A stretch of DNA of 64,000 bases, taken from positions 25,489,936-25,553,935 of the forward strand of contig CAIIXF020000006.1 of assembly GCA_903813345.2 (NCBI GenBank), given 5' to 3'. The stretch is from Owenia fusiformis (taxonomy: Eukaryota > Annelida > Polychaeta > Sabellida > Oweniidae). Shown here piece by piece: positions 14,655 to 61,685 of the stretch. Position numbers and translations under genes: made by a program. The notes beneath the pieces were generated by a model that was not told the DNA's origin, searched no databases, and was given only the letters and a program-made list of their open reading frames with translations. The stretch's first letter is position 1; every line of letters begins with the position of its first letter.

Positions 14655-14804
14655 ACTTTGGAAAAAAGGTGCTTACACCAATGAAGAAGTTGTACGATCA
14701 GCATCCTCCGAATGCAGGGCTCCAGACATCAAAACATCATCTACTACGTTCCTTCCATGAGGCACGAGTTCTGGAGGCCTATCTTCAGAGGATGCACAAT
14801 CAGC
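14655..14804 (-). CDS. Possible exon, gene uncertain
   Basis: On the minus strand CTCTCTCTGTATTCCCAG is a good acceptor. It is followed by an open frame reading KTSADCASSEDRPPELVPHG, then a serine- and acidic-rich stretch to SSL, and a GTGTAAG donor. The composition resembles the disordered middle region of UHRF1BP1-like proteins. However, only phase 0 is open, whereas exon 13 of the lipid-transfer gene ends in phase 1, so at least one unseen exon would be needed between them. It could also belong to another gene or be a chance frame. Confidence 0.3.
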
Positions 14805-14986
14805 TGATGTCTTCTGGGAATACAGAGAGAGGTGTTTTACTCTCTCATTCTCTGTTACATACTGAATCACCAGTACATCCCCATTCAAGGATTATTACAT
14901 TTAACACTGAATAAATGGCACAATCAGTTGATGTCATTTGGGATTTCATATATAGGAGTTTTACTATCTCGACCTCGGTTCTTTAA

Positions 14987-19135: not shown

Positions 19136-19366
19136 CTGGATAGTCAATGCCTTCTGGGAAATAATAATCAGTGTACTCAAAGTGGACCGACGACATCTCT
19201 TGAGGGAGTTTCAACGATTTCTTGTCAGAATGGAGGAATTTTTTTGGCACACTTCTGGAACTATCTGACGAGGATACTCTATATAAAGTGAAGTCCTCTA
19301 GGCGCAGCACGAAAGCACTCTCCAGCAGTTTTCCTGACATTGGCTGTTGCCTTGACTGAGCAGGGC
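19136..19366 (-). CDS. BLTP3: BLTP3/UHRF1BP1-like lipid-transfer protein, exon 13
   Basis: Acceptor TATTATAG and donor CCAG/GTAGGT bound 231 bp, entered and left in phase 1. The frame reads PAQSRQQPMSGKLLESAFVL, then LEDFTLYRVSS, SDKKSLKLPQEM, SSVHFEYTDYYFPEG and DYPG. This corresponds to the conserved segment of human UHRF1BP1L around the KKSLYLPQEM and EFTEYYYPDG motifs. It is the last exon of this gene I can recognise, covering about residues 425-501. In human proteins of about 1,440-1,460 residues, roughly two thirds would follow. Confidence 0.92.
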
Positions 19367-19576
19367 CTATAATACAAAATAAGATGCTTCAACATGATAT
19401 CTTTCAGGCATATATTGACATAGATATACAATTTCCACTGTTGCATTGACTGATCAGAACAAATAGAGTAAAATGCTTTATGTGTTCCAATAACAAATTG
19501 GTAATTTTTTTGCAATTATGGTTAATTCATAAAGCTATGGCAACGTGTTTTTGGGCCTTACATTGACAATGGCCTG

Positions 19577-20091
19577 GTACCTTATCTTGACTCTGTGCTG
19601 AAGCCTTATCTTGACTATGTGCTGAATCCCTACTTTGACTATATGCTGAATCGCAACCTTGACTATGTGCTGAATTCCTACCTTGACTATGTGTGCTGAA
19701 TTCCTACCTTGACTATGTGCTGAATTCCTACCTTGACTATATGCTGAATCCCTACCTTGACTATATGCTGAATCCCTACTTTGACTATCTGCAGAATCCC
19801 TACCTTGACTATATGCTGAATCCCTACCTTGACTATATGCTGAATCCCTACTTTGACTATCTGCAGAATCCCTACCTTGACTATATGCTGAATCCCTACC
19901 TTGACTATATGCTGAATCACTACCTTGACTATGTGCTGAATCCCTACCTTGACTATATGCTGAATCCCTACCTTGACTATATGCTGAATCCCTACCTTGA
20001 CTATATGCTGAATCCCTACCTTGACTATATGCTACATCCCTACCTTGACTATATGCTGAATCCTTACCTTGACTATGTGCTGGTGAAGTTG
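19577..20091 (-). repeat. 24-bp tandem array growing out of the exon 12 splice donor
   Basis: In gene sense the unit reads SAYSQGRD and carries CAAG/GTAGGG, a donor-like site, in every copy. About 22 units are present. The first, at the authentic exon end, has the best donor (CAAG/GTAAGG). Sixteen units share the exon's frame. A 2-bp insertion near 19690 then shifts the rest to IVKVGIQH-type readings. Two units carry SQSRD, with CAAA/GTAGGG. Confidence 0.9.
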
Positions 20092-20232
20092 TAGGTGTAG
20101 GAGGCATATGCTCAGCTAATGCTGCTTTCACTCGTGAAAAGTCTTCAGTGAATGATGAAAACAGTTGCTTCACCCAGGCCTGTCTTGCTGCCATGCCGTC
20201 ATCATACTTGGCCCAGTGCTTGCGGTCTGACC
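20068..20232 (-). CDS. BLTP3: BLTP3/UHRF1BP1-like protein, exon 12
   Basis: Acceptor TTGTTTCAG; 165 bp entered in phase 1 and, at the first donor CAAG/GTAAGG, left in phase 1. It reads GSDRKHWAKYDDGMAARQAW, then VKQLFSSFTEDFSRVKAALA and EHMPPTPTTSPAHSQ. The HW pair and following helix fit the human segment after the GGAMQL motif (SCNHWMYFSD...). The chosen 3' end is the strongest donor by consensus and joins cleanly to exon 13. The exon could be lengthened by multiples of 24 bp through the array that follows, so its true end needs transcript data. Confidence 0.88.
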
Positions 20233-20529: not shown

Positions 20530-20619
20530 CTGCAGGATGGAAGGGGTAGTGGTCCAATGACAGCTTGTACAAGGTCACTTGCATAGCACCGCCCTCTATA
20601 TGTCTGTTGTGGGCCTTGT
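20530..20619 (-). CDS. BLTP3: BLTP3/UHRF1BP1-like protein, exon 11
   Basis: Acceptor TTATTTGCAG and donor CTGCAG/GTAACA bound 90 bp, both in phase 1. It reads DKAHNRHIEGGAMQVTLYKL, then SLDHYPFHPA. This matches the human ESNRRITGGAMQLSFTQLTV segment and the conserved D-Y-Y/H-P residues, part of the first chorein-type repeat region. Numbering leaves 'exon 10' for the optional 36-bp candidate at 23667. Confidence 0.93.
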
Positions 20620-22149: not shown

Positions 22150-23530
22150 TAGATCAGGTAGAACAGGTAAACCTGAAGAGGCATACCTGAAAAGGTAAAC
22201 CTGAAGAGGTATACCTGAAAAGGCATATCTGAAAAGGTAAACCTGAAGAGGCATACCTCAAAAGGTAAACCTGAAGAGACATACCTGAAAAGGTAAACCT
22301 GAAGAGGCATACCTGAACAGGTAAACCTGAAGAGGTACACCTGAAAAGGTAAACCTGAAGAGGCATACCTGAAAAGGCATATCTGAAAAGGTAAACCTGA
22401 AGAGGCATACCTGAAAAGGTAAACCTGAAGAGGCATACCTGAAAAGGTAAACCTGAAGAGGCATACCTGAACAGGTAAACCTGAAGAGGTACACCTGAAA
22501 AGGTAAACCTGAAAAGGCATATCTGAAAAGGTAAACCTGAAGAGGCATACCTGAACAGGTAAACCTGAAGAGGTACACCTGAAGAGGCATACCTGAAAAG
22601 GTAAACCTGAAGAGGCATACCTGAAAAGGTAAACCTGAAGAGGTATACCTGAAAAGGTAAACCTGAAGAGGCATACCTGAAAAGGTAAACCTGAAGAGGC
22701 ATACCTGAAAAGGTAAACCTGAAGAGGCATACCTGAAAAGGCATATCTGAAAAGGTAAACCTGAAGAGGCATACCTGAAAAGGTAAACCTGAAGAGGCAT
22801 ACCTGAAAAGGTAAACCTGAAGAGGTACACCTGAAAAGGTAAACCTGAAAATGCATATCTGAAAAGGTAAACCTGAAGAGGCATACCTGAACAGGTAAAC
22901 CTGAAGAGGTACACCTGAAGAGGCATACCTGAAAAGGTAAACCTGAAGAGGCATACCTGAACAGGTAAACCTGAAGAGGTTCACCTGAAGAGGCATACCT
23001 GAAAAGGCATATCTGAAAAGGTAAACCTGAAGAGGTATACCTGAAAAGGTAAACCTGAAGAGGCATACCTGAAAAGGTAAACCTGAAGAGGCATACCTGA
23101 AAAGGCATATCTGAAAAGGTAAACCTGAAGAGGTATACCTGAAAAGGTAAACCTGAAGAGGCATACCTGAAAAGGCATATCTGAAAAGGTAAACCTGAAG
23201 AGGTATACCTGAAAAGGTAAACCTGAAGAGGCATACCTGAAAAGGCATATCTGAAAAGGTAAACCTGAAGAGGTATACATGAAAAGGTAAACCTGAAGAG
23301 GCATACCTGAAAAGGTAAACCTGAAGAGGCATACCTGAAAAGGCATATCTGAAAAGGTAAACCTGAAGAGGCATACCTGAAAAGGTAAATCTGAAGAGGT
23401 ATACCTGAAAAGGTAAACCTGAAGAGGCATACCTGAAAAGGTAAACCTGAAGAGGCATACCTGAAAAGGTAAACCTGAAGAGGCATACCTGAAAAGGTAA
23501 ACATGAAGAGGCATACCTGAACAGGTAAAC
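22150..23530. repeat. Long minisatellite of 14-bp monomers (about 98 copies)
   Basis: On the plus strand the monomers are CTGAAGAGGCATAC, CTGAAAAGGTAAAC and CTGAAAAGGCATAT in a mixed order. On the gene strand they read GTATGCCTCTTCAG, GTTTACCTTTTCAG and ATATGCCTTTTCAG, so most run from GT to a pyrimidine-rich CAG. The array lies in the intron between exons 9 and 11. All minus frames stay open for hundreds of codons purely because the repeat contains no stop. Confidence 0.95.
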
Positions 23531-34391: not shown

Positions 34392-34851
34392 CTGAAATAG
34401 GTAGAAACATTAAACACACTAGGCTGACATTATAGCCTGACAGTTTATATGCTGGGGACATTTAATGAATTTGAGCAATTCAAGGTACAATACAATTAAA
34501 CCTGTCTAATCTGAACACCACTGAGGCTGGTTAAGAGTGTTCAAATAAACCAGTGTTAACATTTCAAGGGTTTCTAAATATGTGAATGGGCCACAACAAA
34601 GGGACAGAAAAAAGTGTTCCCATTGACCATCTGATATACAGGTTTCACTTTACTCAAACTCAATAATGAGTTGACAATTCTTTACAATAGTTTTTTTAAA
34701 GGTTTAAAGGATTTTATTATCATAAAAGGTCATTATCAGGTTTTACAATAGGTTAGTTAATCAATTTGAACCAATTACAGTTTAAACTTATACCAGGTCG
34801 ATCAATAAGTTCATGGAAAATGGTACTAATGAACTACAGTAGTTGAAAAAA
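34392..34851. other. Intron 5 DNA
   Basis: About 34495-34655 resembles an old copy of the AGTAGAACCTG-type mariner MITE (AAACCTGTCTAATCTGAACA ... TACAGGTTTCACTTTA). Confidence 0.4.
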
Positions 34852-35252
34852 TAAAATCACCTGTATTGAAGCCTGGAATGCATGTGACTTGAAGTTGACA
34901 GTGACAGAGTTTATTGAAATAAAATCACCTGTATTGAAGCCTGGAATGCATGTGACTTGAAGTTGACAGTGACAGAGTTTATTGAAATAAAATCACCTGT
35001 ATTGAAGCCTGGAATGCATGTGACTTGAAGTTGACAGTGACAGAGTTTATTGAAATAAAATCACCTGTATTGAAGCCTGGAATGCATGTGACTTGAAGTT
35101 GACAGTGACAGAGTTTATTGAAATAAAATCACCTGTATTGAAGCCTGGAATGCATGTGACTTGAAGTTGACAGTGACAGAGTTTATTGAAATAAAATCAC
35201 CTGTATTGAAGCCTGGAATGCATGTGACTTGAAGTTGACAGTGACAGAGTTG
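34852..35252 (-). repeat. Six 68-bp tandem copies of the exon 5 3' end and its splice donor
   Basis: Starts at 34852, 34920, 34988, 35056, 35124 and 35192; the sixth is the real exon end. Units look identical. Each carries the coding end (gene sense ...GCTTCAATACAG) plus the donor GTGATT and an 'attttatttcaataaac' stretch. The period is not a multiple of three. Confidence 0.95.
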
Positions 35253-35309
35253 ATAGACATACTAATGCCATCAACCACACGGTCTGTGAAGCCATACTTT
35301 CCTCCAGAG
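35201..35309 (-). CDS. BLTP3: BLTP3/UHRF1BP1-like protein, exon 5
   Basis: Acceptor TTTTATTGCAG and donor ACAG/GTGATT bound 109 bp, entered in phase 2 and left in phase 0. It reads SSGGKYGFTDRVVDGISMSI, then NSVTVNFKSHAFQASIQ. This matches human SEYGFAEKVVEGISVSVNSI and IRIGAKAFNASFELS. The exon end is embedded in the 68-bp tandem array. If it were read through past the donor, the frame would stop after five codons (VILFQ, then TAA), which supports the donor chosen. Confidence 0.95.
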
Positions 35310-39042: not shown

Positions 39043-39224
39043 CTGAAATATACAAAATATGATATATAAACATAGGTTTGAATCATTCTACAAATCTGAA
39101 ATTTTTGATATACGCTTTGAGTTAGAACACATAGTATTCAGAATATATACATAAGCATTCAAGTATCACTCTTAAAGGATACGAAAATGCTCCTCCTTCA
39201 ACAGACAGATAAGATGGATAAACA

Positions 39225-39772
39225 TTTAGCCTGACTTCATACATTTTTAGATTGACCAACATTTGGCCTGATCTCATACATTTTTAGATGGACCACCATT
39301 TGGCCTGACTTCATACATTTTTAGATGGACCACCATTTGGCCTGACTTCATACATTTCTAGATGGACCAACATTTAGCCTGACTTCATACATTTTTAGAT
39401 GGACCAACATTTAGCCTGACTTCATACATTTTTAGATGGACCAACATTTAGCCTGACTTAATACATTTTTAGATGGACCAACATTTAGCCTGACTTCATA
39501 CATTTTTAGATGGACCAACATTTAGCCTGACTTCATACATTTTTAGATGGACCAACATTTGGCCTGACTTCATACATTTCTAGATGGACCAACATTTAGC
39601 CTGACTTCATACATTTCTAGATGGACCGACATTTGGCCTGATCTCATACATGGACCAACATTTAGCCTGACTTCATACATTTTTAGATGGACCGACATTT
39701 GGTCTGACTTCATACATTTTTAGATGGACCAACATTTAGCCTGACTTCATACATTTTTAGATGGGCCAAAAT
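39225..39772. repeat. 37-bp minisatellite upstream of the microexon
   Basis: About 14-15 copies of a unit containing TTTTTAGATGGACCAACATT and TAGCCTGACTTCATACA, with few substitutions and one deleted unit near 39640. Confidence 0.92.
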
Positions 39773-41396
39773 TGCCAGAAATTTTTGGGCAAAAAAAGTT
39801 TGATTTCTATTTTGCCTGCATTATCATATATTTAAGAAGGACCAATATTTGGCCTGACCTCACAATTTTAGTTGATACATTTTCTTTCCCCAATTTCATT
39901 TGTTAACAAATAACATTTTTATTGATTTAACTTAAAAATCTATAATTTTCAATAGCTATTATGCAATGTTAAATCTGTTAAATATCAATGATATTTCAAG
40001 GCTTCATAAATAACATAAATATCACACAGGAAACAGTGTTAAAGGTCTTTCACCTGATTTAAACAATATTTTTATTATTTCCTTAGATACAACATTCCAT
40101 TCTTAAATGTCATTCCTCAAGTTATTCAATACCATTCCCTCTGGAATATATACATTAGTTTCCTGGCATTTTGAAAGACATATAGCTGATTAATGCTATA
40201 CATTTTTAATAGCATGGCTATATAATGCCTCATAATTCAAACTATCATTCTCCTCCAAAATACATTTTAAATCAGATCACATAAATCTGGGGTTTGTTAA
40301 ATGAGTTTAACTAACAGCCCATCTCTAATAAGATTATGAGTCTAGATCCTGAATATCTGTTTACTAAGCACACTACCCACTGACTGCAATAGATTAATTG
40401 TTCTGATTATGATTAGAATCTTAACGATCTCAAATGTGACTTTCATTGCTTTAAGTGAATGTTTCAATGAAAGTAAAAGATATAAAATCAATGTACACTG
40501 TACAATGTAGTTAGTGATGATTTTCTTAGTATATACATCTGGGAGAAGGCAAGAGCTGAGAAAATCTCTAATTAGATCAGTGATCCCTACAGGATTTTTT
40601 CTCAAGTGGGTGCAAAATTCTAATTTTCACAATTAAGACCAAAATTGGCCAAAATATGCCAGTTTTTCATGATTTTTCTCATTTTCAAGTAGGTACAAAT
40701 GGATTTTCAGGTGGGTGCAAACCTATTTTCAAAATCTCAGGTGGGTGCTGCCCCCACTATCTTTGCTGGGGAGATCACTGTAGATTAAGACTGGCTCTTA
40801 GGAAGGGTTCGATCAATCCATCAATATGCTAAAGAATCTAAATCATGTTCTTTTACCCAAGGCAAACTTCAAAGCCAATTTATCTTTTTTGGAGAGAAAT
40901 GTCAAATTTTCTGCTGAGTCGATGTTATTGATAATATTAGATTTACCAATTTATTTTGCATTTTAAAATATTTACTGTAAGTACAAAAATATTGTGTTAT
41001 TTTAGGGACTGGTCACTCAGAACAACATCTTACCGAGTAATCTCTTTAAGAAACTGACAAGTCTCTGTGTAACCATTTGACAACCTGGACTTCACAAACA
41101 AAAGACATTATCACGATCATGACAAGAATGATTACTGCAAATGCCATCTTGTTGCTGAGCTACCAAGGATAAAGAAACTGTCACGCAAGAGACATGTAAT
41201 AGACACGTAATTGACTTTCTCATTAACTGTAAACCTTTGAAGAATCCTGCTAAAATGAGGTTATTACTATTATCACCACCTATTGAAAACTATATGTAAG
41301 TACAAACTCATTATTCGCTGTAGACCAGGGCAGAAACGACCAATATTACCATTATGGCCCACCAATATTGCTCAACCTCACAAACCTGTTACCCCC
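39773..41396. other. Intron 2 DNA
   Basis: A 'ttttctcaagtgggtgcaaaattc' block at about 40598-40750 has several 'aggtgggtgcaaa' repeats. I see no gene in this stretch. Confidence 0.4.
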
Positions 41397-58767: not shown

Positions 58768-59267
58768 TACTATGTCTTTTTACAATGCCAATGTAATGAA
58801 ATTCCCTAACAGACAATGTTACATTCTGATATTCATCGCATCTTTCTGTTTCACAAAACACATTGCTGAGACGAAATGAGATGTCATGGTTTATCATGAT
58901 GAATATGTCATGGTTTTCATCTTGATCTGGAGCAAATAGATGACTTAGGGGAATATATTCGTGGACCAGTATATGACAGTTTAACAGTGTGTGGATGCAA
59001 CTGTCACAATTTATGACGTTTGACAAGGAAATTAAATTGGATTCATAAATCACTGAATTTTTTTGACAATTGGCACTCGACTGTATATTCTCACTATAGT
59101 TATGTTGCCAAATACCTCTGACAGCATGGATCTTTGATCCCGAAACAACTCATTCAGAGCTATTTTCCCTTCTCCTTTACAGATGTTTAGTTTCACTAGA
59201 TTGACAGCTAGACTGATATCACTATATAGCACTAATAATGCTATCATATTAAAGTAAACTTTTTAAC

Positions 59268-61522: not shown

Positions 61523-61685
61523 CTTAATTTGTACTTTGTTGCATACTGCCTTAGATAATCTCAGCCAGGTAGGCAAGTCTAGGAGTTCCATCAGAATTTG
61601 TTCATTTAGCTCCAAGTTGGCTAGTTCACCTTCACCTTTTAGTGTGCTTATGTTGATACGGTCTGGTGTTAAGTTCTTTGTGAAC
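61523..61685 (-). CDS. BLTP3: BLTP3/UHRF1BP1-like protein, exon 2 (chorein N-terminal domain)
   Basis: Acceptor CATATTTCAG and donor TTAAG/GTAAGG bound 163 bp, phase 2 in (one base completes a Lys codon) and phase 0 out. It reads FTKNLTPDRINISTLKGEGE, then LANLELNEQILMELLDLPTW and LRLSKAVCNKVQIK. This is the conserved chorein signature, nearly identical in pattern to human FTKNLSPDKINLSTLKGEGE / LKNLELDEEVLQNMLDLPTW. Its acceptor region is duplicated just upstream in gene sense. Confidence 0.97.

What the first reader, a model, noticed from the sequence alone, without database searches (positions are those of the whole stretch)
19577..20091. Ladder of in-phase splice donors made by a 24-bp repeat at the end of exon 12
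The exon 12 end (SPAHSQ/G) is the first unit of a 24-bp array. Every unit carries CAAG/GTAGGG or CAAA/GTAGGG in the same position. Because 24 is a multiple of three and exon 13 starts by completing a phase-1 codon, any of the first 16 donors keeps the reading frame, each step adding eight residues (SAYSQGRD type). A 2-bp insertion near 19690 ends this: donors beyond it would put exon 13 into a frame that soon stops. The gene could thus produce a family of proteins differing by an SQ-rich linker of variable length, possibly polymorphic between individuals. The array might also be fully exonic or fully intronic.
Basis: partly seen in the sequence, partly recalled or inferred. Interest (0 to 1): 0.85.

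Follow-up and report, generated by a model that had tools for sequence, protein, structure and literature searches.

The report
In-frame splice-donor repeat in BLTP3 gene
In a lipid-transfer gene of an unidentified eukaryote, the end of one exon has been copied about twenty times into the following intron, so the cell meets up to sixteen splice sites that all keep the protein readable; whether it uses more than the first one is unknown, and a similar repeat is already known in a human gene.

Summary
The geometry is real. On the minus strand, exon "12" (20232..20068) of a BLTP3A/B-family lipid-transfer gene (PF24917) ends inside the first unit of a 24-bp minisatellite (19578-20083, 21 units). 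GT stands in the exon-end register in 19 of 21 units. Sites 1-16 join exon "13" in frame; sites 17-22 do not, because of a 2-bp slip. "Every unit carries GTAGGG" is wrong: 13 of 21 do. Donor 1 (AAG|GTAAGG) is the strongest. The usual repeat donor (AAG|GTAGGG) is weaker, but scores above three of the five other donors I located in this gene. Units show no sign of selection for amino acids or donor sites, and the unit is open in two of three frames anyway. Most likely this is an intronic minisatellite seeded at an exon-intron junction; I infer mainly donor 1 use, with low-level +8/+16-residue isoforms in a variable linker. Human ABCA7 has the same arrangement with a 25-bp unit, where one-unit inclusion is about 2%. 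No transcripts, second allele or related genome could be examined, so use and polymorphism remain untested.

The parts
20530..20619 (-). Exon '11' of the BLTP3-like gene
   Evidence: Splice-bounded reading; with exons 12-13 it matches PF24917 positions 340-514
20068..20232 (-). Exon '12' when donor 1 is used; encodes a probable helix, then the PTPTTSPAHSQ linker
   Evidence: alone it matches PF24917 373-422 at 17.5 bits, below the cut-off of 24, joined with exons 11 and 13 at 134.5 bits. Single-sequence model: helix 3-41, then low confidence. My gene finder preferred the longer end at 19708
20062..20070 (-). Donor 1, AAG|GTAAGG, strongest donor of the ladder
   Evidence: 11.3 bits, U1 pairing -10.0 kcal/mol; 0.03% of 6792 GTs in the window reach this score
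19578..20083 (-). 24-bp minisatellite, 21 units, the first spanning the exon 12/intron 12 junction
19708..20067 (-). Part of the array that would be added in frame; donors 2-16 at last exon bases 20044, 20020, ... 19708 (24-bp steps)
   Evidence: In-frame joins 16 of 16 including donor 1; 5.0-8.7 bits for donors 2-16
19690..19695 (-). 2-bp (CA) slip between units 16 and 17 that ends phase compatibility
   Evidence: 26-bp spacing; sites 17-22 out of frame, 6 of 6
19578..19697 (-). Out-of-phase units 17-21; units 20 and 21 have lost GT
19554..19577 (-). Divergent edge copy (unit 22) with AAT|GTAAGG, out of frame
   Evidence: alignment to the consensus beats base shuffles, p=0.012; 8.0 bits
19136..19366 (-). 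Exon '13'; opens with a phase-1 join and continues the BLTP3 domain
   Evidence: PF24917 444-514 at 72.8 bits

Best explanation
A minisatellite arose by repeated tandem copying of the exon 12/intron 12 junction of a BLTP3-family gene and expanded into the intron. Most copies carry a donor-like site in the original register, so the intron begins with a ladder of donors. Splicing most likely uses donor 1 in most transcripts because it is the strongest, lies furthest 5' and gives a short exon (165 nt). The next few donors are used at low level and add 8 or 16 residues to a variable, probably disordered linker between groove segments; the far in-phase donors are rarely or never used. Shown here: the array, its register, the frames, the donor scores and the protein family. 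Inferred: the copying history, the dominance of donor 1, the low-level isoforms, the place of the linker in the fold and its tolerance of added residues.
For: The array straddles the junction, and the unit pattern hits nowhere else in the window. Donor 1 scores 11.3 bits against at most 8.7 for the other in-frame donors. Unit 1 and units 20-21 share GTAAGG/ATAAGG and CAC, whereas inner units are homogenised (9 of 21 identical to the consensus), as expected of an expanding minisatellite. No acceptor-like site above 2 bits lies inside the array. Units show no purifying selection: of 17 distinct changes 1 is synonymous, and 7 fall in the 9 donor positions (P(<=7)=0.74). Precedent: ABCA7's 25-bp VNTR starts with the exon 18 donor, and one-unit inclusion is reported at 2+/-1%. 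The join lies in a weakly aligned stretch of PF24917 (profile 422-444) after a predicted helix.
Against: Ignoring position, donors 2-16 together outweigh donor 1: it gets 33% by matrix weight or 13% by U1 pairing. The usual repeat donor scores above three of the gene's five other located donors, so the ladder may be used substantially. My gene finder scored the exon ending at donor 16 highest. The donor-1 product is about 14 profile columns short of the family; adding 1-2 units raises the PF24917 score from 133.7 to 142.6 and 145.7 bits, though X-filled and scrambled inserts do nearly as well or as well, so the gain mostly reflects length. Donor frequencies were recalled human-like values, not trained on this species. 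No transcript was seen.
Confidence: 0.6

Rival explanations
1. Working ladder: several in-phase donors are each used appreciably, so the gene makes a graded set of proteins with SQ-rich linkers of different length, varying with allele length.
For: 16 of 16 in-phase joins open; 12 of the 15 repeat donors in phase score 8.6-8.7 bits; position-blind models give donors 2-16 67-87% together; one- or two-unit linkers fit the family length best.
Against: Donor 1 is strongest and first; sequential models with an assumed 80-95% capture at donor 1 leave 4-8% for donor 2 and less for each one beyond. No conservation of donors or residues among units. In ABCA7 one-unit inclusion is about 2% and did not depend on repeat length.
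Confidence: 0.18
2. The array is a coding repeat: the exon normally runs through many units to a late in-phase donor (such as unit 15 or 16), and exon 12 ending at unit 1 is the minor form.
For: My simple gene finder scores the exon ending at 19708 highest (92.4), because the frame is open throughout.
Against: The unit is open in two of three sense frames, so openness is weak evidence. Adding all 15 further units lowers the PF24917 score to 123.1 and splits the match in two. Changes among units are not biased to synonymous.
Confidence: 0.08
3. Inert intronic minisatellite: donor 1 is used exclusively and the repeated donors are never selected.
For: Strength and position of donor 1; no constraint on units.
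Against: The next repeat donors score well and lie within 24-48 nt of donor 1; the like-arranged ABCA7 repeat leaks measurably.
Confidence: 0.14

Closest known systems
Human ABCA7 intron 18 VNTR (PMC5954066; section 21 and passages read)
   Same: A minisatellite of 25-bp units starting with the exon's own splice donor, so units repeat the donor; use of a donor one unit further on is observed.
   Different: Its 25-bp unit shifts the frame and the product is subject to decay; here 24 bp keeps phase for 16 donors. ABCA7 has length alleles and RNA data; this locus has neither. In ABCA7 the effect that grows with repeat length is skipping of the next exon, not unit inclusion.
Internal tandem repeats at exon-intron boundaries of human segmental-duplication genes (PMC2812944; abstract and passages read)
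   Same: Tandem repeats across exon ends change splicing; 66% of such intron modifications also have transcript support for the repeat kept in the exon.
   Different: A survey of paralogues; no in-phase donor ladder appears in the passages I read.
Fission yeast introns made of 24-nt tandem repeats, SPOG_01682 and SOCG_00815 (PMC3629103; section 15 and a passage read)
   Same: 24-nt units around an intron and its neighbouring exons, with splice signals thought to come from the repeat.
   Different: There the repeat makes up the new intron (proto-site AGGC); here the acceptor is outside the array and no array acceptor scores above 2 bits.

Membership tests
BLTP3A/B (bridge-like lipid transfer protein 3) | Sequence match to PF24917 above its curated cut-off | tested here: met
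   68.3, 122.9 and 134.5 bits against cut-off 24, 3 of 3 pieces given, covering profile 20-70, 225-337 and 340-514. Exon 12 alone is below the cut-off (17.5 bits)
BLTP3A/B (bridge-like lipid transfer protein 3) | Whole protein with six groove repeats and C-terminal helix (as described for BLTP3A in PMC12583604, passages) | not tested
   Only six coding segments located
Donor-bearing minisatellite at an exon end (ABCA7 type) | Array begins at or across the exon's own donor | tested here: met
   Unit 1 spans 20083-20060 and the junction is at 20068
Donor-bearing minisatellite at an exon end (ABCA7 type) | Donor repeated in following units | tested here: met
   GT in register in 19 of 21 units
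Donor-bearing minisatellite at an exon end (ABCA7 type) | Variable length between alleles | not testable with these tools
   One sequence only; no genome held
Donor-bearing minisatellite at an exon end (ABCA7 type) | Transcripts that include a repeat unit | not testable with these tools
Intron created by tandem duplication (repeat supplies both splice sites) | Acceptor lies within a repeat copy | tested here: not met
   Acceptor at 19366 is outside the array. No array AG scores above 2 bits. Exon 13 shares only AGTCAAGG with the unit: p=0.038 in its first 60 bases, 0.13 over the whole exon

The most novel reading that the evidence does not exclude
An individually variable, in-phase donor ladder sets the length of an SQ-rich linker in a lipid-bridge protein: each added 24-bp unit adds one more donor and eight more residues, so linker length is tuned by splicing and by repeat number without breaking the frame.
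Probability: 0.13. Interest if true: 0.65.

Novelty: new member of a known kind. Interest (0 to 1): 0.36.

Why it matters
If several donors are used, this is a natural series of near-identical, equally spaced donors in which position is the main variable. It would let one measure how far the spliceosome favours the first donor, which ABCA7's frame-shifting 25-bp unit obscures through decay of the longer product. It also shows how a minisatellite at an exon end can feed repeat units into a protein without a frameshift. If only donor 1 is used, it is an ordinary intronic minisatellite.

Tried and rejected
Selection on the repeat as protein or as donors: not supported. In one search (21 units, all columns) the 21 distinct changes were 2 synonymous, 17 non-synonymous and 2 stop. 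In one search, with the first four columns of unit 17 dropped because the insertion affects them, they were 1, 15 and 1 of 17. AGTCAA is invariant in all 21 units, but a run that long is borderline by chance (P=0.054).

Origin of the intron from the repeat: not supported.

Relatives: the exact unit has 0 matches in viral contigs and 0 in genome contigs, and no relative of exon 13 was confirmed in viral contigs (20 pattern matches, 0 confirmed). These collections are not animal genomes, so this says little. No solved structure matched the exon 11-13 protein convincingly (one hit, E 0.76).

Literature searches that gave nothing I used beyond a listing. brought up the earthworm metallothionein paper (PMC12783039, passages), which in those passages concerns repetitive introns, not donor ladders. 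brought up the potato intron paper, ABCA7, another the BLTP papers, another the segmental-duplication survey, another the fission-yeast paper. PMC4974935 (passages) describes the fission-yeast unit as AGGT, whereas the original paper says AGGC.

Gene finder: 8 candidates printed; six overlap pieces that match PF24917; the other two (35309..35201 and 14813..14677) were not tested.

Weaknesses: the donor and acceptor matrices, the amino-acid frequencies, the U1 5' end and the rule that early stops cause decay are recalled, not from a call.

Full report
What is there. The window holds, on its minus strand, part of a gene of the BLTP3A/B family: three typed pieces match PF24917 at 68.3, 122.9 and 134.5 bits, cut-off 24. 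No genome is held for it. Introns and family point to a eukaryote, probably an animal, but the species was not identified. The exons of interest are 20619..20530, 20232..20068 and 19366..19136 (my gene finder itself extended the middle one to 19708).

The array. Tandem Repeats Finder reports 19586-20082, period 24, 20.6 copies. Cut in register, it has 21 units from 20083 to 19578 plus a divergent edge copy, spaced 24 bp except 26 bp between sites 16 and 17. The extra two bases are a CA slip at 19690-19695. Unit 1 contains the end of exon 12. GT stands in the donor register in 19 of 21 units, and units 20 and 21 have AT there. Ten units read AAG|GTAGGG and three AAA|GTAGGG; the remaining eight differ.

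Frames. I joined exons 11, 12 and 13 with exon 12 ended at each of 22 sites. Sites 1-16 give an open product in frame with exon 13 (16 of 16), rising by 8 residues a step from 161 to 281. Sites 17-22, two of which lack GT, are out of frame (6 of 6), with a stop 54 codons before exon 13's end. That is far enough from the next junction for decay of the mRNA to be expected (recalled rule).

Donor strength. With a recalled human-like matrix, donor 1 scores 11.3 bits, which 0.03% of 6792 GTs in the window reach. AAG|GTAGGG scores 8.7 (0.74%), units 15-16 score 8.6, and units 7, 10 and 13 score 5.0-5.6. The gene's other located donors score 11.3, 10.2, 8.0, 7.2 and 6.0. U1 pairing is nearly equal for donor 1 and GTAGGG, -10.0 against -9.7 kcal/mol. 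The usual repeat donor is therefore competent by sequence. Illustrative models disagree: weighting by strength alone gives donor 1 33% (matrix) or 13% (U1 pairing), while sequential capture with an assumed 80-95% at donor 1 leaves 4-8% for donor 2 and less for each one beyond. Inside the array no acceptor-like site exceeds 2 bits; intron 12 has two, at 19449 (7.0) and the presumed real one at 19366 (10.7).

Selection. Counting distinct changes from the consensus and dropping the first four columns of unit 17, 17 changes remain: 15 non-synonymous, 1 synonymous, 1 stop. Seven lie in the nine donor positions, no fewer than random (P=0.74). Neither the peptide nor the donors look conserved among units. 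The consensus unit is open in two of three sense frames, so the long open frame is weak evidence of coding. Nine of 21 units are identical to the consensus, and over the first 16 units a 72-bp lag shows the highest self-identity of the five lags tried (0.949 against 0.920-0.931), which I read as recent expansion.

Protein context. Exon 12 aligns to PF24917 up to about 422 (17.5 bits alone, below the cut-off) and exon 13 from 444 (72.8 bits). A single-sequence model of exon 12 plus array (mean pLDDT 56.9) gives a helix at residues 3-41 and low confidence after it, including some low-confidence helices in the array. Published analysis calls the loop that follows the helix of a groove repeat the site of greatest variability (PMC7613979, passages), and BLTP3 proteins have predicted disordered loops (PMC12583604 and PMC9067936, passages); that this linker is such a loop is my inference. 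Family score against units added: 0, 133.7; 1, 142.6; 2, 145.7; 3, 140.8; 4, 135.8; 5, 133.7; 15, 123.1. Inserts of X (139.5 for 8, 141.9 for 16, 135.7 for 24), a scrambled 16-mer (146.0) and an arbitrary hydrophobic 16-mer (140.5) behave similarly. So the profile mainly expects a linker about 14 residues longer than the donor-1 product. This fits occasional or even regular use of donors 2-3, but does not show it.

Known counterparts. ABCA7's intron 18 VNTR (25-bp unit) begins with the exon 18 donor. A product with one unit retained is reported, at 2+/-1% if the paper's 'respectively' is read in its order of events; it is subject to decay, and its level did not change with repeat length, whereas skipping of exon 19 rose with it (PMC5954066, section 21 and passages). 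By analogy a long array here could favour skipping of exon 13, which is 231 nt (77 codons) and would keep frame; this is untested. Tandem repeats at exon-intron boundaries that alter splicing are described in human duplicated genes (PMC2812944, abstract and passages). Fission yeast has two gained introns made of tandem repeats, with 24-nt units extending into neighbouring exons (PMC3629103, section 15). The present locus is thus a member of a known kind, distinguished by keeping phase. In the listings of ten paper searches and the passages I opened, I saw no in-phase ladder of this sort; the library lacks most subscription papers.

Verdict. Multi-donor use is possible but undemonstrated, and the most likely state is donor 1 dominance with slight leakage into the ladder.

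Noticed in passing
22161-23530, minus strand (intron between 24833 and 20619): About 98 copies of a 14-bp unit (TRF: 48.9 copies of 28 bp), mostly TTTTCAG|GTATGCC or CTTCAG|GTTTACC: these join an acceptor-like to a donor-like site, resembling tandem recursive-splice sites (a likeness recalled, not tested). On the sense strand 37 acceptors and 32 donors score above 7 bits; on the other strand 0 and 44.
   Followed up: partly
59053-59262, minus strand: An open stretch reading LAVNLVKLNICKGEGKIALNELFRDQ resembles the chorein-region exon at 61685..61523 (INISTLKGEGELANLELNEQ); possibly a duplicated or alternative exon (by eye only).
   Followed up: no
34849-35251: 68-bp repeat, 5.9 copies, 100% matches: a very recent expansion or an assembly matter; carries 6 donor-like sites above 7 bits on the minus strand.
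   Followed up: no
39212-39773: 37-bp repeat, about 15 copies, with 13 acceptor-like sites above 7 bits on the plus strand.
   Followed up: no
19350-19357, minus strand: Exon 13 shares AGTCAAGG with the repeat unit near its start; p=0.038 in the first 60 bases but 0.13 over the whole exon, so probably chance.
   Followed up: yes
19449, minus strand: A second acceptor-like site (TGATCAG|TCA, 7.0 bits) lies in intron 12 between the array and exon 13.
   Followed up: no
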